From Tausonia pullulans (taxonomy: Eukaryota; Basidiomycota; Tremellomycetes; Cystofilobasidiales; Mrakiaceae): a stretch of 64,000 nucleotides of DNA. Position numbers and translations under genes: made by a program. Shown here piece by piece: positions 6,599 through 61,169 of this stretch; position 1 is the first letter of the stretch; each line of letters starts with the position of its first letter. The DNA is taken from the NCBI GenBank assembly GCA_951802195.1, contig OX637639.1, positions 260,501 through 324,500 of the forward strand, read 5' to 3'. The notes beneath the pieces were generated by a model, which was not told the origin of the DNA, searched no databases, and saw only the letters and a list, made by a program, of their open reading frames with translations.

Positions 6599-6805
6599 TG
6601 TTAAGATTGGTCAAGGATTCAGGACCGAAGAGGATGGGCGAGAAGAACGGAGGGGATGGAAAGAAAATGGAAGAAATCAAAGAGTGTGGGACAATGAATT
6701 TGGTGGGAAAAGGAAAAAGGTCTGAAAAACGGGAATGCCGAGCGAGCCAGAGAGAGGCTACACAGACCCCCAGCCAGAGCCGACCGAGGCAGCGAGATCC
6801 TAACA
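6599..6805 (-). repeat. Solo LTR at the left border of the repeat block
   Basis: This is a 207-bp terminal repeat. On the minus strand it begins TGTTAGGATCTCGCTGCC and ends ATCTTAACA, the same TGTYAGGATC...TAACA style as the gypsy LTRs inside the block. Its inverted partner is 60,963-61,169. No matching 5-bp target duplication is visible across it (ttttg outside, ggagg inside), and its outermost bases differ from the partner. This is what a recombination breakpoint within the LTR would leave. Confidence 0.75.
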
Positions 6806-6907
6806 GGAGGTGCCCCCGCCAGCGATACGCGCGGCGCTAGAGAGAGAGATGTCAACAACCATCACTCGTCCATCCTTCCTTCCCTCAAGGGCTACCGCCA
6901 AAACGTA

Positions 6908-6999
6908 TGAAGACCGTGGGATTCGAACCCACGCCATAAATGACTGCCGGACAAGAAATATCCTGAAGACAGCGCCTTAGACCACTCGGCCAGATCTCC
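6908..6999 (-). tRNA. tRNA-Leu(CAG) with a 12-nt intron
   Basis: This 92-nt gene folds as a class II tRNA. The acceptor GGAGATC pairs with GGTCTTC (two G-U pairs) and is followed by discriminator A, typical of tRNA-Leu. The D arm is GCC...GGC and the anticodon stem is CTGTC/GGCAG with one G-U pair. The T arm is GTGGG-TTCGAAT-CCCAC. The anticodon loop reads TT-CAG-G, then a 12-nt intron (ATATTTCTTGTC) at the canonical site one base 3' of the anticodon. The B box GGTTCGAATCC is perfect. An identical inverted copy lies at 60,769-60,860. A Ser identity is ruled out by anticodon and discriminator. Confidence 0.95.
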
Positions 7000-7071
7000 A
7001 AACAATGCTGCGATGTTCTCAGCGTTGAATCTGTTCCAATTCTGGAAAACCGCCTAGTCCACGTTTTCGAC

Positions 7072-10000
7072 CTGGACAGCTGAGTGTGAAGATATGGGCT
7101 TCGACTCGATCTTTACGGTCGGATGCCAGACTGCCATCCTCTGGCGGCTAGCCTCTCGATTCCTTCCTCCCGATACCCCTCCGACTAGGATCAGATTCAT
7201 CTCCCGCTCCTCTCCCATCTTACGAACCAGCCTGACGGATGCCGTTTTTGTCATCGCCGGCGAAGCCGTCAGGGTAGCTGCAGTCTATGTCCCCTGCCGA
7301 GACAGCCAAACGAACGGCCGTTCGACAAAGGAGTTCCTCTATACTCTATCTCGCAAGGTACCTGCCCACTCTGACATTCCTCTCCTCCTGGGCGGGGACT
7401 GGAACTGTGTGGAGGACAACTACCTCGACGGGATGAGCCAATTTACCCAGAACGCGGGAAAGGAGGAAACGTGCCGGCTGGCCCGGGACTTTGCCCTCTC
7501 CGACCTATACCGATCCCTATACCCGCTCCAGCGCGAATACACCAACTATACTGGCATCACGCGAGCAGATCGCCGCATCGATTGCTTCTACCTGTCCCCT
7601 CTACTCGCTAGTCGAGCCGTAAGACAGCGCTTCCTGCCACGACCGTCTGGCCATCTCTGCTCTAGCCACAAGCCGATCGAACTCAGCCTCGCCTTCCCAG
7701 GCGCAATCGACCACGGTCCCGGAGCATACAAGATCGGCACACACCTGCTGAAGATTACAGGTTTTGTTGATTACTTCCTATACCACATCCCCAGGTGGTA
7801 CCAAGATGCGCTCACCGAGAGTAAGAATCCCTTCGAGGCTTGGGACAAGACCAAGCTTCAGATAGCGGAGCACGCGGCTGACATCTCAAGACACCTCGCC
7901 CGAATGAGCAGAGTGTCGGGCGGGGATCCACACAGGTCGATCCTCCAAGGCCACGCTCTTCGAGCCCACCTCGAACCAGCCAACACAAGCGAGTATGCCG
8001 TCAAGCAGCGACTAAGATCGTCCGCCAGGCCGACACCATCGCAGCCCTTCGGCCACTCGACAACCCAGCAGCCGCAGCCGCCACACACAACGAGAGCATT
8101 CTTGCTACTGCACACGCCTTCTCCACGACTCTCTACGAGACCAAGCCGACGCCAGCTGCCGAGCACGCCAACGTCCTCCGATATGTCACCAACATACTCG
8201 ACAACTCCCAGAGTCGGACCCTCGAGAAATCCTTCGAACCGGACGAGCTCAGGCGGGCCACGTTCAGATCGAACCGTAACAAGACACCAGGAAGCGACGG
8301 GATCCCCGTCGAGTTCTACCAGGCCACATGGGCTGTCGTCGGCCCAATCCTCCTCAGCCTACTGAACCTCGTCCCGGAGACAGGCCTCCGATCCGCCTCA
8401 CAGCGCGAGGCCCATATCCATCTGATCTTCAAGAAGAAGGGAGATCGCGATCAGATTGCCAACTATCGTCCGATCTCGCTCATCAATGTTGACGCTCGCA
8501 TCTTCTTCCTTGCCATCAACAGCCGCCTGCTCACCGTCGTCGACACCCTCATCGACGGGGACCAGATAGGCTTCCTCCCTGGCCGCGACTCGGGTCGCAA
8601 CATCTCCTCTGTCAGGATCTCGCGGACTTGCCACCTCAGCTCTGCGCCGGTGTCAGGATCTCGCAGACTCGCCACCTCAGCTCTGCGCCTGCCTTTCCCT
8701 TGTTTGCTCCACATTCCCTCATCTTGGACCATTCTTTCGCCACATTGGCTCACCCTCCTTGTCTCATTGCGCTTTCTTCTCTTTTATTTCATCATCTGCT
8801 CTACAGACTTTGCGTTCTCGCACTTCTCATCCCCTCCCTTGTTCTTACCCCTGGCCCATAAAACGCTCATTTCATCGTAGTTTTGTTCTGCACTCTGACT
8901 ATCATTTGGACCCGACAAACTTGCCCAAGACCCTTAAGCAAGCCCGTGTCACCTCCAGCACTTCAGTTCCCTTTCCTCACCCGCCACCGCCCTCAGTACA
9001 CTTCATCGCCAACGTTCCCCTCCTCACCCAATCTTCTCTGCCATTGCCCCTTGGGCCAATCCTAACATCCTCTCTCCAGCTCGCCATAGACGACGAAGAT
9101 ATCTTGCCTGGCGTCCTCGCCCAAGTCGACTTTGAGAAGGCATACGACAGAGTGTCGCACGACTTTGTTGGCCCCTGCCTCAGCCACATGGGATTCGGTC
9201 CGCGCGCCGCCGCGTGGATCACATCAACGATGACCTCTCAGACAGCTCGGCTCATGATCAACGGATGGAGGGGCCAAGCCATCGACATCCGGTCTGGTGT
9301 CCGACAGGGCGATCCCGCGGGCGATCCCGCGGCACCGACGATCTTTGCCCTCCTTCTGGAGCCGCTGGCATGCATGCTCCGCCATCGCCTCCCACCAGCC
9401 AATCCGTCCCCTCTACATGAGCGGAAGGTCCTTCTCTTTGCAGACGATCTAAGTATCCGGTGTCGGACCTGGTCGGAGGTCGATGAGGCGACGGTCTGCC
9501 TCCGAGAGTACGAGAAAGCCTCAGCAAGCAAGCTGAACTACCAGAAATCACTCCTGTATCCTCTGGGGTCATGCCGGACGGATGCGCCTACGAGGTACCA
9601 CGATTGGCGCGTCCAAACGCTGTCATTCGACTTCCTCGGCGTTCCATGAGGTCGCACGGTCAACGGTCCTGCTTGCTGGCGAGATGTCATCGGCAAACTG
9701 AAGGCTCGACTTGCGCGCATCCCGCTGCACGACCTCCCTCTCCTTGCGCGATGCAACGTCATAAACCAGTGCATCTACTCGAAGATCATATACCTGGACC
9801 GCTTCCTGCCGTGCCCAGACGATATCCTGGAAGACCTCGAGGCAACGGCCTACAAGTCTCTCTACCGATCGAAACACCACGACGTCAGCAGGGAACGTCT
9901 GGAAACCCCTCGAAACCTCGGTGGCTTCGGCTTCACGCCACTCCGATTCCGGCTGATCAAAGCGCGCGCCCAGTGGGCTGGCGATGTGCTCTTTCAACCG

Positions 10001-10684: not shown

Positions 10685-11086
10685 TGTTAGGATTGGCCCA
10701 AGGATCAATGGCAGAGAAGATTGGGCGAGGAGAGGGACGTTGGTGACGAAGTGTACTGAGAACGGTGGTGAGTGAGGAAAGGGAACTGAAATGCTGGAGG
10801 TGACACGGGCTCGCTTAAGGGTCTTGGGCAAGTTTGTCGGGTCCAAATGATAGTCAGAGTGCAGAACAAAATCTACGATGAAATGAGCGTTTTATGGACG
10901 AGTGATGAGAACAAGGGAGTGATGAGGATAAGGAAGTGATGAGAAAGTTTAGAAAGCAAAGAGTGTGGGACAGATGAGGCAACAAAGGAATAAAGGAATG
11001 GGAATGCTGAACAAGCAAGGGAAAGGCTATTGGCGCCGCGTTGGCCAGGCGCAGGGTCGAGGTAGCCATTCCGCTAGATTCTGACA
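10685..11086 (-). repeat. LTR of subfamily G2 forming the 3' end of gypsy A (left arm)
   Basis: This 402-bp LTR is inserted in the old LINE after GCCTGAC. On the minus strand it begins TGTCAGAATCTAGCGG and ends CCAATCCTAACA. It resembles the solo LTR at 8,610 more than the 356-bp LTR at the other end of gypsy A, so the two ends of that element do not match. Its inverted partner is 50,898-51,299. Confidence 0.85.
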
Positions 11087-13671
11087 GGCGGAGATGAGCG
11101 ACGTGATCGTACGACTCCCATGTGCCCTCCTCGTCGCGATAGCCTTGCCAGTGAACGAGGTAGAAGTGCTTGCCGTCGCGGACGTCCATCTTGATGATGC
11201 GTTCGACGACGTACAGCTCTGGGTCGGCGGCGTTGACTGGAGGCGCGGCAGGCTGGTGTTGACCGGGGTGTCCGGGGGCGTGTGGCAAGAGGAGCGAGGC
11301 GTGGAAAACAGGATGGACCGGGACTGTGGGAGGCAAGTCGAGCTCGAAGGAGACGTCCGAGAGTACACGGATGATCCAGAAGGGGCCGAGGTGTTTGACA
11401 TCGAGTTTGAGCGAGGGCCGATCGGTGGTAATGTTGCGACTGTTGAGCCAGACGAGATCGCCGGTCTTGAAGATCGGAGGGGAAGGATCCTTGCCGTCTT
11501 CCCCTGGAAAGGTGGTAGGACGACGGGATTGATCAGCGAAGGTCTTGTAGGAGCGTTGGGCAGCGAGGATGTGATCTCGGATCTCGGTATGAAGAGCGCG
11601 AAGCTTGGCAACGGTGGCATCGGCGGCGGGATTGTGCGAGGTAGAGGCGGCGAGGAGGTCAGATGACGAGAGAGGATGGAACCCGTGGTGGGCGAAGAAA
11701 GGCGTGTGCTGGGTGGCGACCGCTAGCGAGTTGTTGAGAGCGAACTCGCAGGTGGGGAGGAGCGAGACCCAGTCGTCTTGATGGTGGTTGCAGAAGATCC
11801 GAAGGAAGGTCTCGACGACGGCGTTAGCGCGCTCGGTTTGGCCGTTGGCCGCGGGGTGGAAGGCGGTAGTGAAATGAGGGGCGGTGCCGATGAGAGAGAG
11901 GAAGGAGCGCCAGAAAGCAGAGGTGAAGGTCGAACCGCGATCCGAGGTGATGTCTGTCTGAAAACCGTGGTGCCGGACAACGTGGTCGAGGTACATCCGA
12001 GCGAGCTCGGGCGCTGCGAAGCCGGCTTCGCAATACGGGACAAGACGAACCATCTTGGTGAATCGATCGATGAAGACTTGAATGCAGTCGAGGCCGTCGG
12101 AGGTCGGGAGCTTGACGATGCCGTCCATGGAGATCATCGTCCAAGGGCGTGTCGGTGGCGGAAGCGGTTGGAGAAGGCCGAGGCCGAAGGGTGCGCGCCG
12201 ATTTGTCTTGTTGCGGACACAAAGGTCGCAGCCGGAGGTGTAGGTTTGGACAAATGTATGGTCAGAGGGGAAAGTGAACGAGCGTCGAAGGAGGTCGTGG
12301 GTCTTGCGAGCGCCAAGGTGCCCAGCGAGTTGAGGCTCGTGGCAGGCGCGGACGAGGTCGAGGCGTAGCTGGTGATCGTCCGGAACGAGGACGAGGCCGC
12401 GCGAGAGGAGGAGGTCTGTAGGGTGGAGCGAGAGACCCTGGAGGGCCTTGACATCGTCGGGAGAGCGAGGGCGATTCGGATGACGGAGGAGGTCAATGAG
12501 GGGGGCGAGTGATGGGTCGGCGAGTTGTGCGGTGAGGAGACGAGGAAGGAGCTTGGGGCGAGGATCGAGGTCGGGAATGGGATCCGGAGGTTCCGAGTCA
12601 ATGGGTTCGAAGGGCGCGGGGATGTTGCCGATAGTATCGAAGGAAGTTTGATCGGGGGGAGCTTGGTCGGGGGGGACTTGATCGAGGGGAGCGGCCGCGG
12701 CCGAAGGATGGGATCTGAGGTTGGCGGCAATGATGTACTGGTCGGGCTTGAGAAGGCGCCTGGGTGTCTGGTCCGAAGGGCGACTCCCCTCCGAAAGGTC
12801 CTGTCGCCTCGACAGGGCATCGGCGACGGTATTGCGTCCTCCAGGGCGGTAGATAACGACAAAGTTGAAGCCAGAGAGGAACTCGGCCCAGCGGGACTCA
12901 CGGCGGGAGATAGCTTTGGAGGTGGTAAAGTACTGGAGCGACTCGTGATCGGTGTAGATGGTGAGAGGTAATGGATGTCCTTCGCAGTAATGGCGCCACT
13001 CCTTGAGGCACTCGATGATCGCCAACATTTCCTTGTCGTGGATCTCGTAGTTGAGTTCGGCCGGGTTGAGTTTGCGTGAGTAGAAGGCGATCGGGCGGAG
13101 TGGCGAGCGAGGGGCAACGGCGCGTTGCGAGAGAACGCCGGCAACAGCGAAATCGGATGAGTCTGTCTCGAGGACGAGGGGAAGCGAGGGATCGAAGACG
13201 GTGAGGACGGCAGACGAGGTGAACTTGGACTTGAGGGTCTTGAAAGCGGCGAGTTGATCCGGTCCGAAGTGGAAGGGGACACCTTTCTTGAGGAGGGACG
13301 TAATGGGGGCGACGACTTTTGAGAACCGGTGGACGAAACGGCGGTAGAAGTTGGCGAATCCGAGGAAGGACTGGATGTGTCTGACCGAGGTGGGTGCTGG
13401 CCAGTCTATGACGGCTGAGATCTTGGAGGGATCCATCTTGATGCCTTGAGCGCCGACGATGTAGCCGAGGAAATCGACCTCGTTCTGGTGGAAGACGCAC
13501 TTCTCCGGTTTGACCCAGAGGCGCGCTGTCAGGAGGCACTCGAGGACAGTGGCAACGTGTTGGCGATGTGTGTCGAGGGTGGGGGAAAATATGAGGATAT
13601 CATCTAGATAGACGATGACGGGGATGTCGAGGAGGTCGCGGAGGGTGTTGTTCATAAAGTGCTGGAATGTG
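11087..13671 (-). pseudogene. Gypsy A pol fossil, 3' part (RT core to chromodomain)
   Basis: This is the downstream part of the pol region of gypsy A, separated from the upstream part by the copia-1 complex. Visible motifs include YLDDIL (reverse transcriptase), FYSRKLNPAELNYEIHDKE (RNase H), a His/Cys integrase zinc region, DRGSTFTSAFW and NGQTERAN in the integrase core, and the chromodomain motif YLVHWQGYRDEEGTWE. The frame continues into the G2 LTR, so the usual C-terminus of the family is not there. It matches 48,325-50,896 in the right arm almost exactly. Confidence 0.85.
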
Positions 13672-13676
13672 GCTGG

Positions 13677-13852
13677 TGTTGAAGGTCTATGTTCGCCCTG
13701 GGGTCCAATGTGGTTGCAAGCTTATTTCATATACCCACTCGACTCTACCCGCTCATATAAGGTTAACCTAGTGGCGTAAAAAGTACTACAAAGGGAGGAC
13801 AAGGGATGAAAACTACTAGATTATAGGTCTCCGTGAATCGCTCCTTCCAACA
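13677..13852 (-). repeat. Copia-1 3' LTR (176 bp)
   Basis: This is the terminal LTR of the copia-1 complex. A purine-rich GAGTGGGAG sits just upstream of it on the minus strand, at the expected polypurine-tract position. The same motif precedes the copia-2 LTRs. Confidence 0.9.
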
Positions 13853-13891
13853 CTCCCACTCGATGAGCTGAGACCTACTTCATTTCCGCTC

Positions 13892-18187: not shown

Positions 18188-18210
18188 GGTCGCTATTGGT
18201 GCTGATAACG

Positions 18211-18234
18211 TGTTGAAGGTCTATGTTCGCCCTG
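18211..18234 (-). repeat. Copia-1 internal LTR, 3' piece left of gypsy B1
   Basis: This is the last 24 bp of a 176-bp copia-1 LTR. The other 152 bp lie at 24,409-24,560. Gypsy B1 separates them, with the ccctg duplication at the junctions. Confidence 0.9.
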
Positions 18235-18592: not shown

Positions 18593-18642
18593 GGAGCCCC
18601 CGGCTAAGGCCCGAACTCCTGAGAGGGCAAAGGACCTGAGAG

Positions 18643-43516: not shown

Positions 43517-43557
43517 GGCGGTAGTGTAGCGTGTTGTTGCAAGTGGTGCTGATAACG

Positions 43558-46897: not shown

Positions 46898-47032
46898 CTA
46901 GCCAAGTGCCCCGACTCACCAACTTTATCTTCTTCACCTGCCAATGGATCCCCGCTTTTCGATAACGTTTCTGGACCCCCTCTTTACTCCTTTTTTATTC
47001 AGAACACCAGAAGATCACCTCACGGTCCTCCC

Positions 47033-50000: not shown

Positions 50001-50896
50001 ACGTTGTCCGGCACCACGGTTTTCAGACAGACATCACCTCGGATCGCGGTTCGACCTTCACCTCTGCTTTCTGGCGCTCCTTCCTCTCTCTCATCGGCAC
50101 CGCCCCTCATTTCACTACCGCCTTCCACCCCGCGGCCAACGGCCAAACCGAGCGCGCTAACGCCGTCGTCGAGACCTTCCTTCGGATCTTCTGCAACCAC
50201 CATCAAGACGACTGGGTCTCGCTCCTCCCCACCTGCGAGTTCGCTCTCAACAACTCGCTAGCGGTCGCCACCCAGCACACGCCTTTCTTCGCCCACCACG
50301 GGTTCCATCCTCTCTCGTCATCTGACCTCCTCGCCGCCTCTACCTCGCACAATCCCGCCGCCGATGCCACCGTTGCCAAGCTTCGCGCTCTTCATACCGA
50401 GATCCGAGATCACATCCTCGCTGCCCAACGCTCCTACAAGACCTTCGCTGATCAATCCCGTCGTCCTACCACCTTTCCAGGGGAAGACGGCAAGGATCCT
50501 TCCCCTCCGATCTTCAAGACCGGCGATCTCGTCTGGCTCAACAGTCGCAACATTACCACCGATCGGCCCTCGCTCAAACTCGATGTCAAACACCTCGGCC
50601 CCTTCTGGATCATCCGTGTACTCTCGGACGTCTCCTTCGAGCTCGACTTGCCTCCCACAGTCCCGGTCCATCCTGTTTTCCACGCCTCGCTCCTCTTGCC
50701 ACACGCCCCCGGACACCCCGGTCAACACCAGCCTGCCGCGCCTCCAGTCAACGCCGCCGACCCAGAGCTGTACGTCGTCGAACGCATCATCAAGATGGAC
50801 GTCCGCGACGGCAAGCACTTCTACCTCGTTCACTGGCAAGGCTATCGCGACGAGGAGGGCACATGGGAGTCGTACGATCACGTCGCTCATCTCCGC
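47033..50896 (+). pseudogene. Gypsy A Pol fossil (right arm)
   Basis: A long open frame carries protease (VDSGATSNF), a short SSPKP linker, reverse transcriptase (VYLDDILIF), RNase H, the integrase zinc region and core (DRGSTFTSAFW, NGQTERAN) and chromodomain (YLVHWQGYRDEEGTWE). The frame passes into the G2 LTR instead of ending as in gypsy B, so the C-terminus is replaced. It lies in the same frame as gag after one conserved stop, the read-through arrangement described for gypsy B1. Confidence 0.88.
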
Positions 50897-50897
50897 C

Positions 50898-51299
50898 TGT
50901 CAGAATCTAGCGGAATGGCTACCTCGACCCTGCGCCTGGCCAACGCGGCGCCAATAGCCTTTCCCTTGCTTGTTCAGCATTCCCATTCCTTTATTCCTTT
51001 GTTGCCTCATCTGTCCCACACTCTTTGCTTTCTAAACTTTCTCATCACTTCCTTATCCTCATCACTCCCTTGTTCTCATCACTCGTCCATAAAACGCTCA
51101 TTTCATCGTAGATTTTGTTCTGCACTCTGACTATCATTTGGACCCGACAAACTTGCCCAAGACCCTTAAGCGAGCCCGTGTCACCTCCAGCATTTCAGTT
51201 CCCTTTCCTCACTCACCACCGTTCTCAGTACACTTCGTCACCAACGTCCCTCTCCTCGCCCAATCTTCTCTGCCATTGATCCTTGGGCCAATCCTAACA
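50898..51299 (+). repeat. G2 LTR at the 3' end of gypsy A (right arm)
   Basis: This is the inverted partner of 10,685-11,086. The old LINE resumes at 51,300 with GTCAGGCAC. Confidence 0.85.
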
Positions 51300-54200
51300 G
51301 TCAGGCACAGCGCACATCGCTTGGACCTGTTGTGCGGCGTAGCGATTCCGTCGGCGAGGAATGCCGCCGCAGTATGCTTTCCTGGGTGGAGACTGTACAG
51401 CGAGAAGCGATGGCCAAGTCGACGTCTTTGGGCGACGCTCGGGACACGGCCTTCAGCAAGCACCACTGACGCTTCCAATCGATCTTGGTAAGCGCCGGGA
51501 AGTGGTCCTGCCAGCCCTTTGGGATGATGAGGTCGCGGTTGGCTAGAGTACGACTGAGTGCGCCGTGGGGCGCACGAGGAACGTTCAGCCGGCCAAGGTT
51601 TGTGTGGATCGGGTGGAGACCCAGCCGCAACTGGCTATCTGTACCGAACGTAGATCCAGTGGACAGCGTTCCTCCAGCGGTTTTGATTCCAGTAGCTCAT
51701 GTCAAAGCTGATTTCTTCGAACCATGCCCGGAGGTAAGCCTGCCATCGCGCAGGGAGAGCTCCTTGGAGCGTTGAGATGGCATTCCACCAGGCGGCTGGG
51801 AAGAACCATTGACCTTCCACTGGGGAAAGAAATACGCCTAACCAGCTGAAATTGGCGGGCCGAGGTCCTCTGATGAACTCTCCATCCCTGAAGATGGTGC
51901 GAGTCAGCATTCTATAAGCCCTCTGGGTCAAGGCTCATGGTATGGATGATACGCTTGCGAATACGGATCGATGCGGGAAGCTCCGGTTGAAAGAGCACAT
52001 CGCCAGCCCACTGGGCGCGCGCTTTGATCAGCCGGAATCGGAGTGGCGTGAAGCCGAAGCCGCCGAGGTCTCGAGGGGTTTCTAGACGCTCCCTGCTGAC
52101 GTCGTGGTGTTTCGATCGGTAGAGGGACTTGTAGGCCGTTGCCTCGAGGTCTTCCAGGATATCGTCTGGGCACGGCAGGAAGCGGTCCAGGTAGATGATC
52201 TTCGAGTAGATGTACTGGTTGATGACGTTGCATCGCGCAAGGAGAGGGAGGTCGTGCAGCGGGATGCGCGCGAGTCGAGCCTTCAGTTTGCCGATGACAT
52301 CTCGCCAGCAAGCAGGACCGTTGACCGTGCGACCACATGGAACGCCGAGGAAGTCGAATGACAGCGTTTGGACGCGCCAATCGTGGTACCTCGTAGGCGC
52401 ATCCGTCCGGCATGACCCCAGAGGATACAGGAGTGATTTCTGGTAGTTCAGCTTGCTTGCTGAGGCTTTCTCGTACTCTCGGAGGCAGACCGTCGCCTCA
52501 TCGACCTCCGACCAGGTCCGACACCGGATACTTAGATCGTCTGCAAAGAGAAGGACCTTCCGCTCATGTAGAGGGGACGGATTGGCTGGTGGGAGGCGAT
52601 GGCGGAGCATGCATGCCAGCGGCTCCAGAAGGAGGGCAAAGATCGTCGGTGCCGCGGGATCGCCCTGTCGGACACCAGACCGGATGTCGATGGCTTGGCC
52701 CCTCCATCCGTTGATCATGAGCCGAGCTGTCTGAGAGGTCATCGTTGATGTGATCCACGCGGCGGCGCGCGGACCGAATCCCATGTGGCTGAGGCAGGGG
52801 CCAACAAAGTCGTGCGACACTCTGTCGTATGCCTTCTCAAAGTCGACTTGGGCGAGGACGCCAGGCAAGATATCTTCGTCGTCTATGGCGAGCTGGAGAG
52901 AGGATGTTAGGATTGGCCCAAGGGGCAATGGCAGAGAAGATTGGGTGAGGAGGGGAACGTTGGCGATGAAGTGTACTGAGGGCGGTGGCGAGTGAGGAAA
53001 GGGAACTGAAGTGCTGGAGGTGACACGGGCTTGCTTAAGGGTCTTGGGCAAGTTTGTCGGGTCCAAATGATAGTCAGAGTGCAGAACAAAACTACGATGA
53101 AATGAGCGTTTTATGGGCCAGGGGTAAGAACAAGGGAGGGGATGAGAAGTGCGAGAACGCAAAGTCTGTAGAGCAGATGATGAAATAAAAGAGAAGAAAG
53201 CGCAATGAGACAAGGAGGGTGAGCCAATGTGGCGAAAGAATGGTCCAAGATGAGGGAATGTGGAGCAAACAAGGGAAAGGCAGGCGCAGAGCTGAGGTGG
53301 CGAGTCTGCGAGATCCTGACACCGGCGCAGAGCTGAGGTGGCAAGTCCGCGAGATCCTGACAGAGGAGATGTTGCGACCCGAGTCGCGGCCAGGGAGGAA
53401 GCCTATCTGGTCCCCGTCGATGAGGGTGTCGACGACGGTGAGCAGGCGGCTGTTGATGGCAAGGAAGAAGATGCGAGCGTCAACATTGATGAGCGAGATC
53501 GGACGATAGTTGGCAATCTGATCGCGATCTCCCTTCTTCTTGAAGATCAGATGGATATGGGCCTCGCGCTGTGAGGCGGATCGGAGGCCTGTCTCCGGGA
53601 CGAGGTTCAGTAGGCTGAGGAGGATTGGGCCGACGACAGCCCATGTGGCCTGGTAGAACTCGACGGGGATCCCGTCGCTTCCTGGTGTCTTGTTACGGTT
53701 CGATCTGAACGTGGCCCGCCTGAGCTCGTCCGGTTCGAAGGATTTCTCGAGGGTCCGACTCTGGGAGTTGTCGAGTATGTTGGTGACATATCGGAGGACG
53801 TTGGCGTGCTCGGCAGCTGGCGTCGGCTTGGTCTCGTAGAGAGTCGTGGAGAAGGCGTGTGCAGTAGCAAGAATGCTCTCGTTGTGTGTGGCGGCTGCGG
53901 CTGCTGGGTTGTCGAGTGGCCGAAGGGCTGCGATGGTGTCGGCCTGGCGGACGATCTTAGTCGCTGCTTGACGGCATACTCGCTTGTGTTGGCTGGTTCG
54001 AGGTGGGCTCGAAGAGCGTGGCCTTGGAGGATCGACCTGTGTGGATCCCCGCCCGACACTCTGCTCATTCGGGCGAGGTGTCTTGAGATGTCAGCCGCGT
54101 GCTCCGCTATCTGAAGCTTGGTCTTGTCCCAAGCCTCGAAGGGATTCTTACTCTCGGTGAGCGCATCTTGGTACCACCTGGGGATGTGGTATAGGAAGTA

Positions 54201-54900
54201 ATCAACAAAACCTGTAATCTTCAGCAGGTGTGTGCCGATCTTGTATGCTCCGGGACCGTGGTCGATTGCGCCTGGGAAGGCGAGGCTGAGTTCGATCGGC
54301 TTGTGGCTAGAGCAGAGATGGCCAGACGGTCGTGGCAGGAAGCGCTGTCTTACGGCTCGACTAGCGAGTAGAGGGGACAGGTAGAAGCGATCGATGCGGC
54401 GATCTGCTCGCGTGATGCCAGTATAGTTGGTGTATTCGCGCTGGAGCGGGTATAGGGATCGGTATAGGTCGGAGAGGGCAAAGTCCCGGGCCAGCCGGCA
54501 CGTTTCCTCCTTTCCCGCGTTCTGGGTAAATTGGCTCATCCCGTCGAGGTAGTTGTCCTCCACACAGTTCCAGTCCCCGCCCAGGAGGAGAGGAATGTCA
54601 GAGTGGGCAGGTATCTTGCGAGATAGAGTATAGAGGAACTCCTTTGTCGAACGGCCGTTCGTTTGGCTGTCTCGGCAGGGGACATAGACTGCAGCCACCC
54701 TGACGGCTTCGCCGGCGATGGCAAACACGGCATCCGTCAGGTTGGTTCGTAGGATGGGGGAGGAGCGGGAGATGGATCTGATTCTAGTCGGAGGGGTATT
54801 GGGAGGGAGGAATCGAGAGGCATGCCGCCAGAGGATGGCAGTCTGGCAACCGACCGTAAAGATCGAGCCGAAGCCCATATCTTCACACTCAGCTGTCCAG
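51300..54900 (-). mobile_element. Old 5'-truncated LINE copy (right arm), split by a solo LTR
   Basis: This is the inverted partner of 7,072-10,684. It shares the three frameshifting lesions of the left copy but lacks the left copy's 12-bp duplication and its stop near 9,647. Hence a 433-codon frame (51,912-53,213) remains open through FADD. Its first few hundred bases (54,400-54,900) match the young LINE next door better than they match the left-arm partner, suggesting gene conversion. It is truncated at 51,300 by the G2 LTR. Confidence 0.9.
52905..53362 (-). repeat. Solo LTR in the old LINE (right arm, 458 bp)
   Basis: This is the inverted partner of 8,610-9,067, with target duplication gagga at 52,900-52,904 and 53,363-53,367 and the same 41-bp terminal tandem repeat. 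Confidence 0.92.
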
Positions 54901-55138
54901 GTCGATTTTTTTTTGTATTTAAGTCATGAGTTATACGTGGAGAACGAGGTAACCCTATGAGAGATGATGATTCGTAGCTAGATAGAAGGAAAGCGAAAAT
55001 GAAAGTAGGGGTGGAAGGAAAACAAAAGATGGGTTATGGACATAGGCCCATTAGAAAAGGTAAGATATTAAGATGACCAGATACACCAAGCATTGGCTAT
55101 GTACCACCAGCCATACTTCCCCACCCCTGACCTGCTTT

Positions 55139-58100
55139 TCACCCGGAATCGATGGCGGCACCGACAGCAGTACCAGCCATCTGGCCACTGCCAGCCCTCC
55201 ACCTCGTACTCGACTGCCAGTGTGCCTGCCGGATTGTGGACGCGATCTTGCGGATCTCCTCGTCCTTGACAGGATCGAGGGCTGCGATCTTGCTGTACCT
55301 CCGCCTCCGGACGGATCGCCATGTCCGGGCAACAAAGATGCAGTGGAAGAGGAAGACCCCCCTCGGCGGCGACGGTGTCGGGCAGACAAGCGTCTGGAGG
55401 GAGGGAGGATGGGAGGGGAGTGAAGGAGAGGCATGCGCTGCCGCAGCCGACCAGATAGCGCCCACGACGGGACACGGCTCGTCGAAGAGGTGGAAGAAGG
55501 ACTCAACGGGGGCCGTCAGGCACAGCGCACATCGCTTGGACCTGTTGTGCGGTGTAGCGGTGCCGTCGGCGAGGAATGCCGCAGCAGTATGCTTTCCTGG
55601 GTGGAGACTGTACAGCGAGAAGCGGTGGGCCAAGTCGACGTCTTCGGGCGACGCTCGGGACACGGCCTTGAGCAAGCACCACTGCCGCTTCCAATCAATC
55701 TTGGTGAGCGCCGGGAAGTGGTCCTGCCAGCCCTTTGGGATGATGAGGCCGCGGTTGGCTAGAGTACGACTGTGTGCGCCGTGGGGTTCACGAGGGGCGT
55801 TCAGCCGGCCGAGGTTTGTGTGGATAGGGAGGAGACCCAGCCGCAACTGGCTATCTGTACCGAACGTAGACATCCAGTGGACAGCGTTCCTCCAGCGGTC
55901 TTGATTCCAATAGCTCATGTCAAAGCTGACTTCTTCGAACCATGCCCGGAGGTAAGCCTGCCATCGCGCAGGGAGAGCTCCTTGGAGCGTTGAGATGGCA
56001 TTCCACCAGGCGGCTGGGAAGAACCATTGACCTTCCACTGGGGAAAGAAATACGCCTAACCAGCTGAAATTGGCGGGCCGGGGTCCACTGATGAACTCTC
56101 CATCCCTGAAGATGGTGCGAGTCAGCATTCTATAAGCTTCTGGATCGAGGCTCATGGTATGGATGATGCGCTTGCGAATGCGGATCGATGCGGGGAGCTC
56201 CGGTCTGAAGAGCACATCGCCAGCCCACTGAGCGCGCGCTTTGATGAGCCGGAAGCGGAGTGGCGTGAAGCCGAAGCCGCCGAGGTCTCGAGGGGTTTCT
56301 AGACGCTCCCTGCTGACGTCGTGGTGTTTCGATCGGTAGAGGGACTTGTAGGCCGTTGCCTCGAGGTCTTCCAGGATATCGTCTGGGCACGGCAGGAAGC
56401 GGTCCAGGTAGATGATCTTCGAGTAGATGTACTGGTTGATGACGTTGCATCGCGCAAGGAGAGGGAGATCGTGCAGCGGGATGCGCGCGAGTCGAGCCTT
56501 CAGTTTGCCGATGACATCTCGCCAGCAAGCAGGACCGTTGACCGTGCGACCGCATGGAACGCCGAGGAAGTCGAATGACAGCGTTTGGACGCGCCATTCG
56601 TGGTACATCGTTGGCGCATCCGTCCGGCATGACCCTAGAGGATAAAGGAGTGATTTCTGGTAGTTCAGCTTGCTTGCTGCGGCTTTCTCGTACTCTCGGA
56701 GGCAGACCGTCGCCTCATCGACCTCCGACCAGGTCCGACACCGGATACTGAGATCGTCTGCAAAGAGAAGGACCTTCCGCTCGTGTAGAGGGGGCGGATT
56801 GGCTGGTGGGAGGCGATGGCGGAGCATGCATGCCAGCGGCTCCAGGAGGAGGGCGAAGATCGTCGGTGCCGCGGGATCGCCCTGGCGGACACCAGACCGG
56901 ATGTCGATGGCTTGGCCCATCCATCCGTTGATCATGAGCCGAGCAGTCTGAGAGGTCATCGTTGAGGTGATCCACGCAGCGGCGCGCGGACCGAACCCCA
57001 TGTGGCGGAGGCAGGGGCCAACAAAGTCGTGCGATACTCTGTCGTATGCCTTCTCAAAGTCGACCTGGGCGAGGACGCCAGGCAAGATGTCTTCGTCGTC
57101 TATGGCGAGCTGGAGAGAGGAGATGTTGCGACCCGAGTCGCGGCCAGGGAGGAAGCCTGTCTGGTCCCCGTCGATGAGGGTGTCGACGACGGTGAGCAGG
57201 CGGCTGTTGATGGCAAGGGAGAAGATGCGAGCGTCAACGTTGATGAGCGAGATCGGACGGTAGTTGGCAATCTGGTCGCGATCTCCCTTCTTCTTGAAGA
57301 TCAGATGGATATGGGCCTCGCGCTGTGAGGCGGATCGGAGGCCTGTCTCCGGGACGAGGTTCAGCAGACTGAGGAGGATCGGGCCGACGACAGCCCATGT
57401 GGCCTGGTAGAACTCGACGGGGATCCCGTCGCTTCCTGGTGTCTTGTTACGGTTCGATCTGAACGTGGCCCGCCTGAGCTCGTCCGGTTCGAAGGGTTTC
57501 TCGAGGGTCCGACTCTGGGAGTTGTCGAGTGTGTTGGTGACATATCGGAGGACGTTGGCGTGCTCGGCAGCTGGCGTCGGCTTGGTCTCGTAGAGAGTCG
57601 TGTAGAATGTATGTGCTGTAGCAAGAATGCTCCTGTTATTTGTGGCGGCTGCGGCTGCTGGGTTGTCGAGTGGTCGAAGGGCTGCGATGGTGTCGGCCTG
57701 GCGGACGATCTTGAGTCGCTGCTTGACGGCATACTCGCTTGTGTTGGCTGGTTCGAGGTGGGCTCGAAGAGCGTGGCCATGGAGGATCGACCTGTGTGGA
57801 TCCCCGCCTGTCACTCTGCTCATTCGGGCGAGGTGTCTTGAGATGCAAGACGCCTCCTGCGCTATCTGAAGCTTGGTCTGGTCCCAGGCCTCGAAGGGGT
57901 CCCTGATCTCGGTGAGCGCATCTTGGTACCACTTGGGAACGTGGTAGAGGAAGTACTCAACGAAGCCTGTGATCTTCAGAAGGTGTGTTCCGATCTTGTA
58001 CGATCCGGGGCCGTGCTCTATTGCACCGGGGAAGGTGAGGCTGAGTGCGATCGGCTTGTGGCTAGAGTAGAGGTGGCCAGACGGTCGTGGCAGGAAGCGC

Positions 58101-58813
58101 TGTCGTACGGCTCGGCTAGCGAGTAGAGGGGACAGGTAGAAGCGATCGATGCGGCGATCTGCTCGCGTGATGCCAGTATAGTTAGTGTACTCGCGCTGGA
58201 GCGGGTATAAGGATCGGTATGGGTCGGAGAGGGCAAAGTCCCGGACCAGCCGGCACATTTCCTCCTTCCCCACGTTCTGGGTAAATGGGCTCATCCCGTC
58301 GAGGTAGCTGTCCTCCACACAGTTCCAGTCCCCGCCCAGGAGGAGAGGAATGTCAGAGTGGGCAGGTATCTTGCGAGATAGAGTATAGAGGAACTCCTTT
58401 GTCGAACGGCCGTTCATTTGGCTGTCTCGGCAAGGGACATAGACTGCAGCCACCCTGACGGCTTCGCCGGCGATGGCAAACACGGCATCCGTCAGGTTGG
58501 TTCGTAGGATGGGGGAGGAGCGGGAGATGGATCTGATTCTAGTCGGAGGGGTATTGGGAGGGAGGAATCGAGAGGCATGCCGCCAGAGGATGGCAGTCTG
58601 GCAACCGACCGTAAAGATCGAGCCGAAGCCCATATCTTCACATTCGGCTGTCCAGGTAGCTACCTGATCTGGTGTTGTGCATGCTACTTCAGAGAGAAGG
58701 TATATGTCAGCCTTGGATCGTGAATAGAGGGAGAGGAGGAGACTGCGGGCGCGATCTCGCGTGAACACCCTCTGGATGTTCGCCGCGACGATCTGGACAT
58801 CGTTGTACACCAT
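55139..58813 (-). CDS. LINE ORF2: apurinic-type endonuclease plus reverse transcriptase
   Basis: This 1,224-residue protein starts MVYNDVQIVAANIQRVF. The N-terminal endonuclease domain (about 1-240) shows LLSEV, GGDWNC and DRRIDRFYLSP. The final motif reads SSHKPI where the family normally has SDHxP, so the usual Asp is Ser. Reverse transcriptase covers about 420-760, with QVDFEKAYDRVSHDF, SGVRQGDPAAPTIFALLLEP and the catalytic VLLFADDLS. The C-terminal region carries a Cys-His motif (CALCLTAPVESFFHLFDEPC, C-x2-C-x9-H-x5-C) as in many LINEs. No RNase H domain is obvious. Role by family: nicks the target and reverse-transcribes the element RNA in place. The frame is open throughout. The start overlaps the ORF1 stop. 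Confidence 0.93.
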   Translation of the reverse strand: MVYNDVQIVAANIQRVFTRDRARSLLLSLYSRSKADIYLLSEVACTTPDQVATWTAECEDMGFGSIFTVGCQTAILWRHASRFLPPNTPPTRIRSISRSSPILRTNLTDAVFAIAGEAVRVAAVYVPCRDSQMNGRSTKEFLYTLSRKIPAHSDIPLLLGGDWNCVEDSYLDGMSPFTQNVGKEEMCRLVRDFALSDPYRSLYPLQREYTNYTGITRADRRIDRFYLSPLLASRAVRQRFLPRPSGHLYSSHKPIALSLTFPGAIEHGPGSYKIGTHLLKITGFVEYFLYHVPKWYQDALTEIRDPFEAWDQTKLQIAQEASCISRHLARMSRVTGGDPHRSILHGHALRAHLEPANTSEYAVKQRLKIVRQADTIAALRPLDNPAAAAATNNRSILATAHTFYTTLYETKPTPAAEHANVLRYVTNTLDNSQSRTLEKPFEPDELRRATFRSNRNKTPGSDGIPVEFYQATWAVVGPILLSLLNLVPETGLRSASQREAHIHLIFKKKGDRDQIANYRPISLINVDARIFSLAINSRLLTVVDTLIDGDQTGFLPGRDSGRNISSLQLAIDDEDILPGVLAQVDFEKAYDRVSHDFVGPCLRHMGFGPRAAAWITSTMTSQTARLMINGWMGQAIDIRSGVRQGDPAAPTIFALLLEPLACMLRHRLPPANPPPLHERKVLLFADDLSIRCRTWSEVDEATVCLREYEKAAASKLNYQKSLLYPLGSCRTDAPTMYHEWRVQTLSFDFLGVPCGRTVNGPACWRDVIGKLKARLARIPLHDLPLLARCNVINQYIYSKIIYLDRFLPCPDDILEDLEATAYKSLYRSKHHDVSRERLETPRDLGGFGFTPLRFRLIKARAQWAGDVLFRPELPASIRIRKRIIHTMSLDPEAYRMLTRTIFRDGEFISGPRPANFSWLGVFLSPVEGQWFFPAAWWNAISTLQGALPARWQAYLRAWFEEVSFDMSYWNQDRWRNAVHWMSTFGTDSQLRLGLLPIHTNLGRLNAPREPHGAHSRTLANRGLIIPKGWQDHFPALTKIDWKRQWCLLKAVSRASPEDVDLAHRFSLYSLHPGKHTAAAFLADGTATPHNRSKRCALCLTAPVESFFHLFDEPCPVVGAIWSAAAAHASPSLPSHPPSLQTLVCPTPSPPRGVFLFHCIFVARTWRSVRRRRYSKIAALDPVKDEEIRKIASTIRQAHWQSSTRWRAGSGQMAGTAVGAAIDSG

Positions 58814-60273
58814 TATTCTTCCATGTCCTCGGCTTCAGCCAAGGTCACGAGGGTGCGCTCGATGGATGCCTGGGAGGACGGCGTGGAGGGGATGAGAGAA
58901 GGAGTGGAGGGTGAGTTCAGGGGGATTGAAGATGGGGGGGAGGGGGATGAGGGAGGGGGAGACGATGGTGACAGGGGAGGTGGGGTGGGAGGAGGATGCT
59001 CGTCTTCGATCTGCATCCCGTCTTCTGTCCTCTCCAGACCCCCCTCGTTGTCCTCCTCTAGGGCGCTCAGCGTGCGAATGGGTTGCGAGCCCGCATTGCG
59101 CGGTGCTTGCTCTGAGTGGGAGTGGGAGGAGTCGGCGTGGGCAGGAGGTGTCGCCACCTCCGTCGTGGCTTCAGTCGGCCTGTTCAGTGACCTCCTCTTG
59201 GATTTTTGTACAAGCTGGAAACCATCCAGGTCTGGTCCCGGTTCGACAGGTCGTTGGGGGGGTCCTTCGGTTGGTGCTCGCGCACTCGCTGGAAGGTTTG
59301 CCTTCGGACGACCTGGGCATCGGGTCAATGGGTGAGCGCGTGATCCGCATCCGCCACACTCTGGAGCGGTGGGACACTTGACACGAGCGTGCTCAAAAGA
59401 GTGGCAGTAGTAGCAGTGCGTCGGGGCTGGACGTGATGGAGAGTTTGTCGCAGAGCTAGTCTGGACGGGTTTGAACAAGACATCGCAGTTGACCCAGCCG
59501 GGGAACTGCTGAGTGAAGGCATTTGCCCTCGGCATCATCTTGGAGCCAGAGAGGTCGAGTAGGACTCTAGCCCGGCCAGTTGGGACGCCGGGTAAGCGGG
59601 GGTCGAATTGACGCTGGAAGAGGATGACTCTGTCTCCGGAGGCTTCTACCTGTTTGCGGAACTCCTCCTCTACTCCCTTGTTATCTTCGAAGTTCTCCAG
59701 CAGACCTTCCTGCAGGAGCTTGTTTTGGGAATTGTAGCACGCGTGGATCTGAGGTTTCACCCCCCTCACGTTCAGCGGGAGGGACTGTAGTTTGGTCAGG
59801 ATGTCCTGAGCATCTTCTTCTGGTCTGACTTGGAGGAGCATTCTGTCTTTAGGGTCCTTGAAAGGACGGATCAGGAAAGACAGCCGTTCGTCACACTTGG
59901 AGATTGCGAGAGAGATCTCGAAGGGAGTGGTATCGCGAGGGACAGAGATGGCTAGACAGCTCCCGCGATTGATAGTCAAGGCTGGGGCGATTGGGGTATT
60001 GTCCTGCGGAGGTTGTTGATCGGTTCCGAAGGCGAAGGTGAACCCGGGCTGGGTGCCAGACGAGTCACGTTGCCTCGCAGCTGAGTTTGTAGGATGAGCC
60101 TGTTTGGCGGCGTTTGCATATGAGCGGCCGGTGGCTTTCGGCTGGGATTTCGCGGCAGCGCGAGTGCGAGTGCCGGCGGAGGTCGCCGGCGCGGGCGACG
60201 CGGCGCCGGGGACGAAGAGAGGTTGTTGAGAGAGAGTCTCGCCTGTAGAGCGAGACGGAGTGAGACGCGTCAC
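58813..60273 (-). CDS. LINE ORF1: zinc-knuckle RNA-binding protein (5' end uncertain)
   Basis: The C-terminal 486 residues are clear. They hold a Gln/Asn/Ala-rich start, a conserved core with FLIRPFKDPKDRMLLQVRPE, two CCHC-type knuckles (CYYCHSFEHARVKCP and CGGCGSRAHPLTRCP at about 295-330) and a Pro/Ser-rich acidic tail ending EAEDMEE. The listed 5' end is not a real start: the codon there is GTG. The frame stays open to about 60,613 with no ATG. Upstream, at about 60,615-60,690, a different frame reads like coding sequence (PKRLQEALKAPKDPP). So either a frameshift near 60,500-60,600 or 5' truncation has removed the start. The family role is coating element RNA. Confidence 0.85.
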   Translation of the reverse strand: MTRLTPSRSTGETLSQQPLFVPGAASPAPATSAGTRTRAAAKSQPKATGRSYANAAKQAHPTNSAARQRDSSGTQPGFTFAFGTDQQPPQDNTPIAPALTINRGSCLAISVPRDTTPFEISLAISKCDERLSFLIRPFKDPKDRMLLQVRPEEDAQDILTKLQSLPLNVRGVKPQIHACYNSQNKLLQEGLLENFEDNKGVEEEFRKQVEASGDRVILFQRQFDPRLPGVPTGRARVLLDLSGSKMMPRANAFTQQFPGWVNCDVLFKPVQTSSATNSPSRPAPTHCYYCHSFEHARVKCPTAPECGGCGSRAHPLTRCPGRPKANLPASARAPTEGPPQRPVEPGPDLDGFQLVQKSKRRSLNRPTEATTEVATPPAHADSSHSHSEQAPRNAGSQPIRTLSALEEDNEGGLERTEDGMQIEDEHPPPTPPPLSPSSPPPSSPSPPSSIPLNSPSTPSLIPSTPSSQASIERTLVTLAEAEDMEE

Positions 60274-60768
60274 TTCGGACGTGGAGGATAGAGCGGCATT
60301 GAGGTCGCTGATGGCTGAACTCGACCGCGTGATACGGCGAATTGAAGGGGTTGCAGGGGTTCTGCGGAGGGGGGAGGGAGAATAGAGGAGGGCCGTGGGG
60401 CTGATATGGATGAGGGGGTTGGCAGGGTTGGTGCGGTTGGTAGGATTGGTAGGAGTGCTGGGGTCGGTAGGATTGGTAGGAGTGCTAGGGCTCCTAGGAC
60501 TGGTCGGGTCGGATGGGCAGGTGGGCTGAGGGTGGGTTTGTTGACGGGCGTTTGGGGACGTTCGTCGACGCGAGAGGGCGTATTGGTCGCGTCTTGGACG
60601 CTTGGGGTTTCATCGGATCCGCTCTTTCTCTTTGCTGAGGAGGGAGGGTCCGGGGGATCCTTGGGAGCCTTGAGGGCTTCTTGGAGTCGCTTGGGGGTCG
60701 AAAACGTGGACTAGGCGGTTTTCCAGAATTGGAACAGATTCAACGCTGAGAACATCGCAGCATTGTTT

Positions 60769-60860
60769 GGAGATCTGGCCGAGTGGTCTAAGGCGCTGTC
60801 TTCAGGATATTTCTTGTCCGGCAGTCATTTATGGCGTGGGTTCGAATCCCACGGTCTTCA
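60769..60860 (+). tRNA. tRNA-Leu(CAG) with a 12-nt intron (inverted second copy)
   Basis: It is identical to the gene at 6,908-6,999, in opposite orientation: same cloverleaf, CAG anticodon, 12-nt intron after G37 and discriminator A. The flanking 60,861-60,962 also matches 6,806-6,907. Together the two genes bracket the retroelement block, each transcribed outward toward the nearer host gene. Confidence 0.95.
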
Positions 60861-60962
60861 TACGTTTTGGCGGTAGCCCTTGAGGGAAGGAAGGATGGAC
60901 GAGTGATGGTTGTTGACATCTCTCTCTCTAGCGCCGCGCGTATCGCTGGCGGGGGCACCTCC

Positions 60963-61169
60963 TGTTAGGATCTCGCTGCCTCGGTCGGCTCTGGCTGGGG
61001 GTCTGTGTAGCCTCTCTCTGGCTCGCTCGGCATTCCCGTTTTTCAGACCTTTTTCCTTTTCCCACCAAATTCATTGTCCCACACTCTTTGATTTCTTCCA
61101 TTTTCTTTCCATCCCCTCCGTTCTTCTCGCCCATCCTCTTCGGTCCTGAATCATTGGGCCAGTCCTAAC
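60963..61169 (+). repeat. Solo LTR at the right border of the repeat block
   Basis: It begins TGTTAGGATCTCGCTGCC, the inverted partner of 6,599-6,805. Identity stops at 61,152, and the last bases (CATTGGGCCAGTCCTAAC) differ from the left copy. No target duplication is seen. Confidence 0.75.

What the first reader, a model, noticed from the sequence alone, without database searches (positions are those of the whole stretch)
6616..61152. Retroelement-only block built as a giant inverted repeat with tRNA-Leu genes at both borders: candidate regional centromere
Seen: 55 kb without a protein-coding host gene, made of nested gypsy, copia and LINE copies, arranged as two inverted arms of about 11.4 kb shared sequence around a unique centre. 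Identical tRNA-Leu genes sit at each outer edge and ordinary host genes lie immediately outside. Established: Cryptococcus centromeres are gene-free clusters of gypsy and copia elements, and S. pombe centromeres have inverted repeats bounded by tRNA genes that act as heterochromatin barriers. Chromodomain gypsy elements favour heterochromatin. Inference: this could be a centromere combining both designs, which to my knowledge would be unusual in a basidiomycete.
Basis: partly seen in the sequence, partly recalled or inferred. Interest (0 to 1): 0.85.

Follow-up and report, generated by a model that had tools for sequence, protein, structure and literature searches.

The report
Inverted-repeat retroelement centromeres in a yeast
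In the yeast Tausonia pullulans this gene-free, mirror-image block of jumping genes looks like the centromere of chromosome 20, because similar blocks occur about once on every chromosome, which would be an unusual centromere layout for this large group of fungi.

Summary
The block is real and the centromere reading survives the sequence tests I could run. The window matches chromosome 20 of Tausonia pullulans gfTauPull1.1. Its 55 kb hold gypsy, copia and LINE copies plus two tRNA-Leu genes, in two arms sharing 11.4 kb (46 mismatches). Gypsy/copia hits form one main cluster on each of 20 chromosomes. One copia family (copia2, at the centre here) had 38 of 38 scored hits in one spot per chromosome, on 18 chromosomes (45 of 141 candidates scored). 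Of nine blocks compared at DNA level, seven have clear inverted arms, one (C14) is ambiguous, one (C16, part only) showed none; a tenth chromosome shows mirrored coordinates. All 17 gypsy arm pieces compared have their closest fetched copy in their own block, so arms are duplicated or homogenised chromosome by chromosome. Gypsy and copia1 mostly point outward (38 of 41, 12 of 13). Corrections: the centre is repeats with a 200-N gap; tRNA genes were not found at the eight other blocks, as far as fetched, and are better explained by a LINE lying 65-80 bp upstream of tRNA genes. No CENP-A, Hi-C or methylation data were available, so function stays inferred.

The parts
3851..6309 (+). left flanking host gene, CDF zinc transporter, 11 exons, 497 aa
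   Evidence: spliced by eye; best relative Mrakia frigida 64% identity
6612..7072 (.). outermost segment of left arm, inverted copy of 60696-61156, 1 mismatch in 461
6907..7000 (-). tRNA-Leu(CAG) with 12-nt intron
   Evidence: ARAGORN with introns; Rfam RF00005
7067..10684 (+). 5'-truncated LINE, interrupted at 8611-9067 by an LTR-like piece
11086..13678 (-). older chromodomain gypsy, outer part (continues at 26795)
   Evidence: Pfam RVT_1, Chromo, integrase zinc-binding and others
13676..18234 (-). copia1, open frame of 1,442 aa; with the elements up to 26794 it forms the insertion that the right arm lacks
   Evidence: empty site and 5-bp duplication read
18235..24403 (-). full-length gypsy with identical 358-bp LTRs and a 5-bp target-site duplication, chromodomain
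24404..26794 (-). tandem internally deleted copia1 copies, period 1,117 bp
26795..29654 (-). older gypsy, inner part of left arm
30559..33573 (-). copia2 fragment
33572..38691 (-). gypsy identical to 18234-23354 over 5,121 bp, cut off by the scaffold gap
38692..38891 (.). run of 200 N: scaffold gap, true size unknown
38892..43881 (-). full-length copia2 (the family whose scored hits lie in one spot per chromosome), 303-bp LTRs identical
43882..44677 (+). inner end of right arm, copia2 piece; 43882-44462 is the inverted copy of 30586-31166
45453..50898 (+). right-arm copy of the older gypsy, uninterrupted (empty site for the copia1 insertion)
51300..54905 (-). right-arm copy of the 5'-truncated LINE
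54906..60695 (-). near-full-length LINE (ORF2 55139-58834 with RVT_1 and a sub-threshold endonuclease/exonuclease match, ORF1 58813-60609 without Pfam match), inserted between tRNA flank and right arm, 6-bp duplication
60696..61156 (.). outermost segment of right arm
60768..60861 (+). tRNA-Leu(CAG) with 12-nt intron
   Evidence: Rfam
61157..61885 (.). degenerate gypsy-type LTR remnants outside the right arm
   Evidence: matches at 61428-61546 and 61688-61885; rest by reading
62437..63837 (-). long open frame of the right flank, no Pfam match

Best explanation
This is the regional centromere of chromosome 20 of Tausonia pullulans. It is a retroelement-only block in which a chromodomain gypsy, a copia family (copia2) seen only in such blocks, and a second copia pile up, arranged as two inverted arms around a core. 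Shown: composition, arms, one main block per chromosome, confinement of the scored copia2 copies, and arms that are near-identical within a chromosome while blocks on different chromosomes are built mostly from different nested insertions. Inferred: the core or the whole block carries CENP-A and the kinetochore; the arms are packed as heterochromatin, which the gypsy chromodomain integrase may recognise so that new copies keep landing there; gene conversion or break-induced copying between the arms restores the inversion and keeps the arms alike. The outward polarity of gypsy and copia1 is observed; that it reflects directional integration or selection against transcription into the core is a guess. 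The tRNA genes are LINE landing sites caught in the duplication, not a general boundary device.
For: Host: longest scaffold 2,178,134, N50 1,354,748, N90 647,864, 20 chromosomes and an 18.82-kb mitochondrion in PMC11803393 (part 1 of 3 of the text read) equal C1, C8, C17, C1-C20 and C21 here. One main gypsy/copia cluster on each of 20 scaffolds, 74 of 87 hits inside (with C9, C11, C13 settled). copia2: 38 of 38 scored hits at 95% identity or more in one span of at most 20.4 kb per chromosome, 18 chromosomes, 11 of them with two or more hits (45 of 141 candidates scored). Clear inverted arms by DNA in 7 of 9 blocks: C3 3.3 kb 99.6%, C6 9.5 kb 99.97%, C8 6.0 kb 99.98%, C12 4.3 kb 99.98%, C15 4.4 kb 99.84%, C19 9.9 kb 98.9%, and C20; C5 by mirrored coordinates of two gypsy hits. 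C3, C15 and C19 are free of N over arms and core. Of 17 gypsy pieces of 500 bp or more in the arms, 17 have their closest copy in their own block (16 at 99.3-100%, one at 94.0%) against 86.7-97.9% for the best copy in another fetched block. Polarity: 38 of 41 gypsy and 12 of 13 copia1 hits point outward. Fetched blocks span about 17-55 kb against a published Cryptococcus centromere median of 32.9 kb (passage of PMC11185503).
Against: No CENP-A, kinetochore, Hi-C or chromatin data were seen. No CENP-A gene was recognised: I fetched 5 loci covering 7 of 20 histone hits; three are ordinary or near-ordinary H3, and introns could hide a divergent one. C14 has inverted pairs that are mostly young copia copies no closer to each other than to copies elsewhere, so they may be separate insertions. 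C16 gave no long inverted repeat in the 9.8 kb compared (interior not fetched). Ten chromosomes (C1, C2, C4, C7, C9, C10, C11, C13, C17, C18) were not tested for arms by DNA. C5 and C16 have no scored copia2 hit. Eleven of 55 gypsy hits lie outside the blocks, 7 of them within 40 kb of a scaffold end. C3 and C14 share one short two-family junction. No GC drop marks the block. The centre in this window and in C6 contains a scaffold gap. The published total, 23,873,987 bp, exceeds the 23,855,473 here by 18.5 kb, though 20 scaffolds make up the published 99.84%.
Confidence: 0.86

Rival explanations
1. A nest of retroelements in non-centromeric heterochromatin, with inverted arms formed by chance rearrangement; the centromere is elsewhere.
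For: No functional data; 13 of 87 gypsy/copia hits lie outside the main clusters, with groups of two gypsy hits at C4 1572-1589 kb and C6 995-1007 kb.
Against: One main block on each of 20 chromosomes and all scored copia2 hits inside them; clear inverted arms in 7 of 9 blocks compared.
Confidence: 0.1
2. A tRNA-bounded centromere of the fission-yeast kind, in which the two tRNA-Leu genes act as heterochromatin barriers at the outer edges (a reading of the borders, compatible with the block being a centromere).
For: Identical tRNA-Leu genes at both outer edges; tRNA genes are likely boundaries at fission-yeast centromeres (passages of PMC6538654).
Against: No tRNA gene in 264,300 bases from eight other blocks and some flanks; the adjacent LINE lies 65-80 bp upstream of other tRNA genes elsewhere, a simpler reason for the pairing.
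Confidence: 0.1
3. Assembly artefact: two contigs ending in the same repeat were joined so that a false inverted repeat appears.
For: A 200-N gap lies inside the block here and right at the inner end of the left arm in C6; 58 contigs were joined into 21 scaffolds (PMC11803393).
Against: Both arms are continuous with different flanks, differ by 46 mismatches, and carry different later insertions with target-site duplications; the design is free of N in C3, C15 and C19.
Confidence: 0.03
4. The inversion and polarity are inherited: blocks descend from one inverted ancestor or exchange pieces between chromosomes (a reading of the origin, compatible with the block being a centromere).
For: The same element families and the same polarity on many chromosomes; C3 and C14 share a junction of a gypsy LTR end with copia1 at element position 456; one 387-bp LTR piece is 99.7% alike in C8 and C15; in Candida tropicalis the repeats are homogenised within and between chromosomes (passages of PMC4741521).
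Against: Apart from that short C3/C14 junction, no alignment between the 9 blocks joined 60 bp or more of two element families (30 flagged alignments); 17 of 17 gypsy arm pieces are closest to a copy in their own block.
Confidence: 0.22

Closest known systems
Cryptococcus retroelement centromeres (Tremellomycetes)
   Same: ORF-free regions with LTR elements that largely coincide with CENP-A; similar size (median 32.9 kb; passages of PMC11185503)
   Different: Inverted arms and outward polarity were found here; I recall no such layout in Cryptococcus, and the passages read do not describe one
Candida tropicalis homogenised inverted-repeat centromeres (Ascomycota)
   Same: Inverted arms around a core, arms more alike within than between centromeres (passages of PMC4741521)
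   Different: Here arms and core are nested retroelements, not a shared mid core, and blocks on different chromosomes are mostly built differently
Schizosaccharomyces centromeres
   Same: Inverted repeats around a central core; tRNA genes at edges (passages of PMC6538654)
   Different: tRNA genes were found at one of nine blocks looked at and are explained by LINE targeting; no shared core seen
Ganoderma leucocontextum GlCEN427 centromeric copia
   Same: A copia family confined to one predicted centromere per chromosome (passages of PMC10817607)
   Different: No inverted arms in the passages read; low GC there, no GC drop here
Dictyostelium TRE5 (for the LINE only)
   Same: Non-LTR element sitting upstream of tRNA genes in opposite orientation (passages of PMC5911963)
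   Different: Fungal host; spacing 65-80 bp rather than 40-54 bp; targeting inferred from few copies; endonuclease match below Pfam's cut-off

Membership tests
Regional retroelement centromere (Cryptococcus type) | Gene-free block of LTR retroelements | tested here: met
   No unmatched stretch over 415 bp between 7067 and 60695; host gene on the left, domains of host genes in 4 of 10 flank frames of other blocks
Regional retroelement centromere (Cryptococcus type) | One such block per chromosome | tested here: met
   20 of 20 scaffolds have one main cluster (C9, C11, C13 rest as well)
Regional retroelement centromere (Cryptococcus type) | Element family confined to centromeres | tested here: met
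   copia2 38 of 38 scored hits on 18 chromosomes; 45 of 141 candidates scored, so confinement of the rest is untested
Regional retroelement centromere (Cryptococcus type) | CENP-A binding | not testable with these tools
   No ChIP data held
Regional retroelement centromere (Cryptococcus type) | CENP-A gene in the genome | tested here: inconclusive
   20 histone hits; 5 loci covering 7 hits read, no CENP-A recognised
Inverted-repeat centromere (C. tropicalis / fission yeast type) | Long inverted arms around a core on each chromosome | tested here: inconclusive
   Clear in 7 of 9 blocks compared by DNA, C14 ambiguous, C16 none in part; C5 by coordinates; ten chromosomes untested
Inverted-repeat centromere (C. 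tropicalis / fission yeast type) | Non-repeat or shared core | tested here: not met
   Core here is copia2 and gypsy with a scaffold gap
tRNA-bounded centromere (fission yeast type) | tRNA genes at edges of the centromeres | tested here: not met
   Found in C20 only; none in 264,300 bases from eight other blocks and some flanks
tRNA-targeted LINE (TRE5 type) | Insertion at a short fixed distance upstream of tRNA genes, opposite orientation | tested here: inconclusive
   Of 5 further copies 2 lie 80 bp from a tRNA-Ser, 2 behind the tail of another LINE, 1 uninformative; L003 and L004 at 65 and 69 bp; LINE piece in L007 with no tRNA in 3.1 kb

The most novel reading that the evidence does not exclude
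Tausonia pullulans has a new centromere layout: on most or all of its 20 chromosomes the centromere is a self-renewing palindrome of recently active retroelements with outward polarity, kept symmetrical by conversion between the arms while chromodomain gypsy and a centromere-only copia keep inserting, so that symmetry and polarity, not sequence, mark the centromere.
Probability: 0.37. Interest if true: 0.85.

Novelty: new variant of a known kind. Interest (0 to 1): 0.72.

Why it matters
Inverted-repeat centromeres are known in ascomycetes and retroelement centromeres in basidiomycetes; a genome that combines both on most tested chromosomes would show that mirror symmetry arises again from quite different material, and would let one ask in a small, sequenced yeast whether symmetry itself helps to set up CENP-A chromatin. 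The polarity of the elements is a directly testable puzzle about how retroelements read centromeric chromatin. In my searches I saw no centromere paper for the order Cystofilobasidiales and no basidiomycete inverted-repeat centromere, but these were listings, several cut short (20 of 276 listed; 8 of 8; 1 of 1; 15 of 373; 15 of 78; 8 of 8), and most subscription journals are not held.

Tried and rejected
Rejected: chance mirror of independent insertions for C20 and six other blocks (same nested junctions in mirror order, and one arm is the empty site of the other in C20), but not excluded for C14; mating-type locus with inverted flanks (no genes inside, and a block on each chromosome); subtelomeric block (C20 block at 267-321 kb of 496 kb); scaffolding artefact (C3, C15, C19 free of N); a low-GC centromere; tRNA barriers as a general design. 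Led nowhere: Argonaute (PF02171) and RdRP (PF05183) searches gave no hit; their control genomes rang in 1 and 0 of 14, so I draw no conclusion on RNAi. TTAGGG x4: none.

Rows dropped or merged: for I left out 14 of 46 rows (12 second pieces of copies already listed, 2 short pieces, all inside main clusters) and merged six rows into three (58 to 55). In one search, 14 gypsy hits (10 more than 40 kb from a centre, 4 on C16 without one), 3 copia1 hits (more than 40 kb away) and 22 copia2 hits (no arm midpoint) were left out; copia2 itself is mixed (11 of 16 outward). Results against a strict polarity rule: with the copia2 hits added, the strand order of C4, C10 and C18 is no longer minus-left/plus-right; one search found 14 of 15 two-strand clusters in that order and none reversed (best of 20,000 strand shuffles: 10). 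Mirror arms make the two sides of a block dependent, so one chromosome is one vote: for gypsy 14 of 17 all outward, 3 mixed, 0 all inward. The random placement treats hits as independent, which tandem and mirrored copies are not. The LINE control (74,831 flank bases, no LINE) used flanks cut after annotation; LINE pieces at C14 670.4-671.4 kb, just inside the cut and without a tRNA nearby, were thereby left out. Changed after checking: inverted arms from 8 to 7 clear blocks plus C14 ambiguous, and one shared junction found; I lowered the novel reading from 0.40 to 0.37 and raised the shared-origin rival from 0.20 to 0.22 for that.
Full report
Where it is. The window is G000:C20:260501-324500 of a 23,855,473-bp assembly in 21 scaffolds. 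Scaffold lengths equal those of Tausonia pullulans gfTauPull1.1: longest 2,178,134, N50 1,354,748, N90 647,864, mitochondrion 18.82 kb, 20 chromosomes, HiFi at 458-fold plus Hi-C (PMC11803393, part 1 of 3 of the text read; lengths). The published total is 23,873,987 bp, 18.5 kb more than here; the 20 large scaffolds alone make the published 99.84%. The flanking zinc transporter is closest to Mrakia frigida (64%). So this is chromosome 20 of a basidiomycete yeast (Tremellomycetes, Cystofilobasidiales, Mrakiaceae).

The block. With four element families cut from the window as yardsticks, 7067-60695 is LINE, gypsy with chromodomain, copia1 and copia2, with no unmatched stretch above 415 bp besides the N run. 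The inverted arms add up to 11,445 aligned columns with 46 mismatches and one 12-nt indel. Each arm has an insertion that the other lacks: a 13-kb copia1/gypsy nest on the left (5-bp duplication) and a LINE on the right (6-bp duplication), by my reading of the junctions, so the arms were mirrored before those insertions. One gypsy and one copia2 copy have identical LTR pairs, so insertion is recent. The centre is not unique sequence, and 38692-38891 is a run of 200 N.

One per chromosome. A copia search (32 of 142 candidates scored) and a gypsy search (51 of 93 scored) gave 87 hits after dropping 14 and merging six rows (see Tried and rejected). Each of 20 scaffolds has a main cluster and 74 of 87 hits lie in it; 75 hits fall in groups of two or more, against a mean of 14 and a maximum of 32 in 2,000 random placements. 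C9, C11 and C13 rested on single hits. A copia2 search (45 of 141 scored) gave 38 hits at 95% identity or more on 18 chromosomes, in one span of at most 20.4 kb on each, 11 chromosomes having two or more hits; it placed the blocks of C9 at 720-729 kb and C11 at 224-236 kb. C5 and C16 had no scored copia2 hit. Of the 13 hits outside main clusters, two pairs (C4, C6) are the only groups, and neither is a mirrored pair of equal score.

Inverted arms elsewhere. I fetched whole or partial blocks of C3, C6, C8, C12, C14, C15, C16 and C19 besides the window. Clear inverted arms of 3.3-9.9 kb at 98.9-99.98% are present in C3, C6, C8, C12, C15 and C19 besides C20. C14 has inverted pairs up to 4.1 kb at 99.7%, but they are young copia copies that match copies in other blocks as well (99.6-99.7%), so they may be separate insertions. 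C16 showed no long inverted repeat in the 9.8 kb compared. C5 shows two gypsy hits with mirrored coordinates. Ten chromosomes were not tested. C3, C15 and C19 contain no N over arms and core.

Homogenised within chromosomes. Of 17 gypsy pieces of at least 500 bp in the arms of seven blocks, 17 have their closest copy in their own block: 16 at 99.3-100%, one at 94.0%, against 86.7-97.9% for the best copy in another fetched block. No cross-block alignment joined 60 bp or more of two element families (30 flagged alignments are gypsy with a variant LTR, or unannotated pieces). Against this: copia1 pieces in C3 and C14 start at the same element position behind the same short gypsy-LTR end, one shared junction, and a 387-bp LTR piece is 99.7% alike in C8 and C15. 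Either a chimeric element moved, or blocks do exchange at times.

Polarity. With a centre taken from the arm midpoint or, where unknown, from copia2, 38 of 41 gypsy and 12 of 13 copia1 hits are transcribed away from the centre; copia2 is mixed, 11 of 16. By strand order of the 87 hits, 14 of 15 two-strand clusters are minus-left/plus-right and none is reversed; adding the copia2 hits breaks that order in C4, C10 and C18. One chromosome is one vote: for gypsy 14 of 17 all outward, 3 mixed, none all inward. I know of no such rule for centromeric retroelements; that is recall, not a search result.

The tRNA genes. They are tRNA-Leu(CAG) genes with a 12-nt intron, but ARAGORN found none in 264,300 bases from eight other blocks and some flanks. 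The LINE beside them lies 72 bp upstream on both sides. The four other tRNA loci that matched the tRNA (three called Leu, one SeC by ARAGORN) all hold LINE pieces within 1.5 kb; two pieces lie 65 and 69 bp upstream of a tRNA gene and face away, one 223 bp, one is a weak 75% match. Flank DNA of 74,831 bases held none, but those flanks were cut after annotation and leave out LINE pieces at the C14 edge; and L007 holds a LINE piece with no tRNA in 3.1 kb. Of five further LINE copies (the first five outside the C2 tandem row in the ranking), two begin 80 bp upstream of a tRNA-Ser, two begin behind what reads as the tail of another LINE, one was uninformative. The simplest account is a LINE that prefers to land upstream of tRNA genes, sometimes repeatedly, which could explain the LINE rows on C2 and C11. 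The tRNA-plus-LINE edge was then caught in the inverted duplication of chromosome 20.

How it probably works. Inferred: CENP-A chromatin on the core or block, heterochromatin on the arms, chromodomain gypsy drawn to it, conversion between arms restoring symmetry. In Candida tropicalis the inverted order of repeats was shown to matter for CENP-A on plasmids (passages of PMC4741521); nothing here tests that for Tausonia.

Limits.

Noticed in passing
scaffold ends L028, L029, L032-L035, L037-L039, L041, L044-L047: Telomere repeat is a 13-nt unit (C strand CCCAACCTACCGA), not TTAGGG: at 14 of 17 readable ends sampled, two more read N; TTAGGG x4 not found. Six one-unit rotations found in no held paper.
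   Followed up: partly
window 7000-7073 and 60695-60768; L003, L004, L061, L063: A LINE lies 65-80 bp upstream of tRNA-Leu, tRNA-Asp and tRNA-Ser genes, facing away: a probable tRNA-targeted LINE in a basidiomycete, behaving like Dictyostelium TRE5.
   Followed up: partly
G000:C2:364549-399101 and G000:C11:446973-468250: Rows of near-identical LINE copies in the same orientation (six on C2, three on C11), on C2 next to the block; perhaps repeated landing at one tRNA gene.
   Followed up: no
G000:C1:2055481-2073954, G000:C19:494905-509346, window 24404-26794: Tandem rows of copia copies inside blocks (four on C1, three on C19 sharing LTRs, short deleted copia1 units in the window): sign of unequal exchange or ring-type products.
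   Followed up: no
G000:C1:1562, C3:5771, C10:12437, C11:547, C4:1583347: Full-length gypsy copies printed as 100% identical to the window's copy near scaffold ends: a second, subtelomeric niche for the same gypsy family.
   Followed up: no
G000:C3:751908-751950 and G000:C14:686514-686557: The same junction of a gypsy LTR end with copia1 position 456 on two chromosomes: a chimeric element or exchange between blocks.
   Followed up: partly
PMC11803393 Table 1: Published BUSCO completeness of this assembly is only 29.9% despite QV 71.1 and 100% k-mer completeness; unexplained.
   Followed up: no
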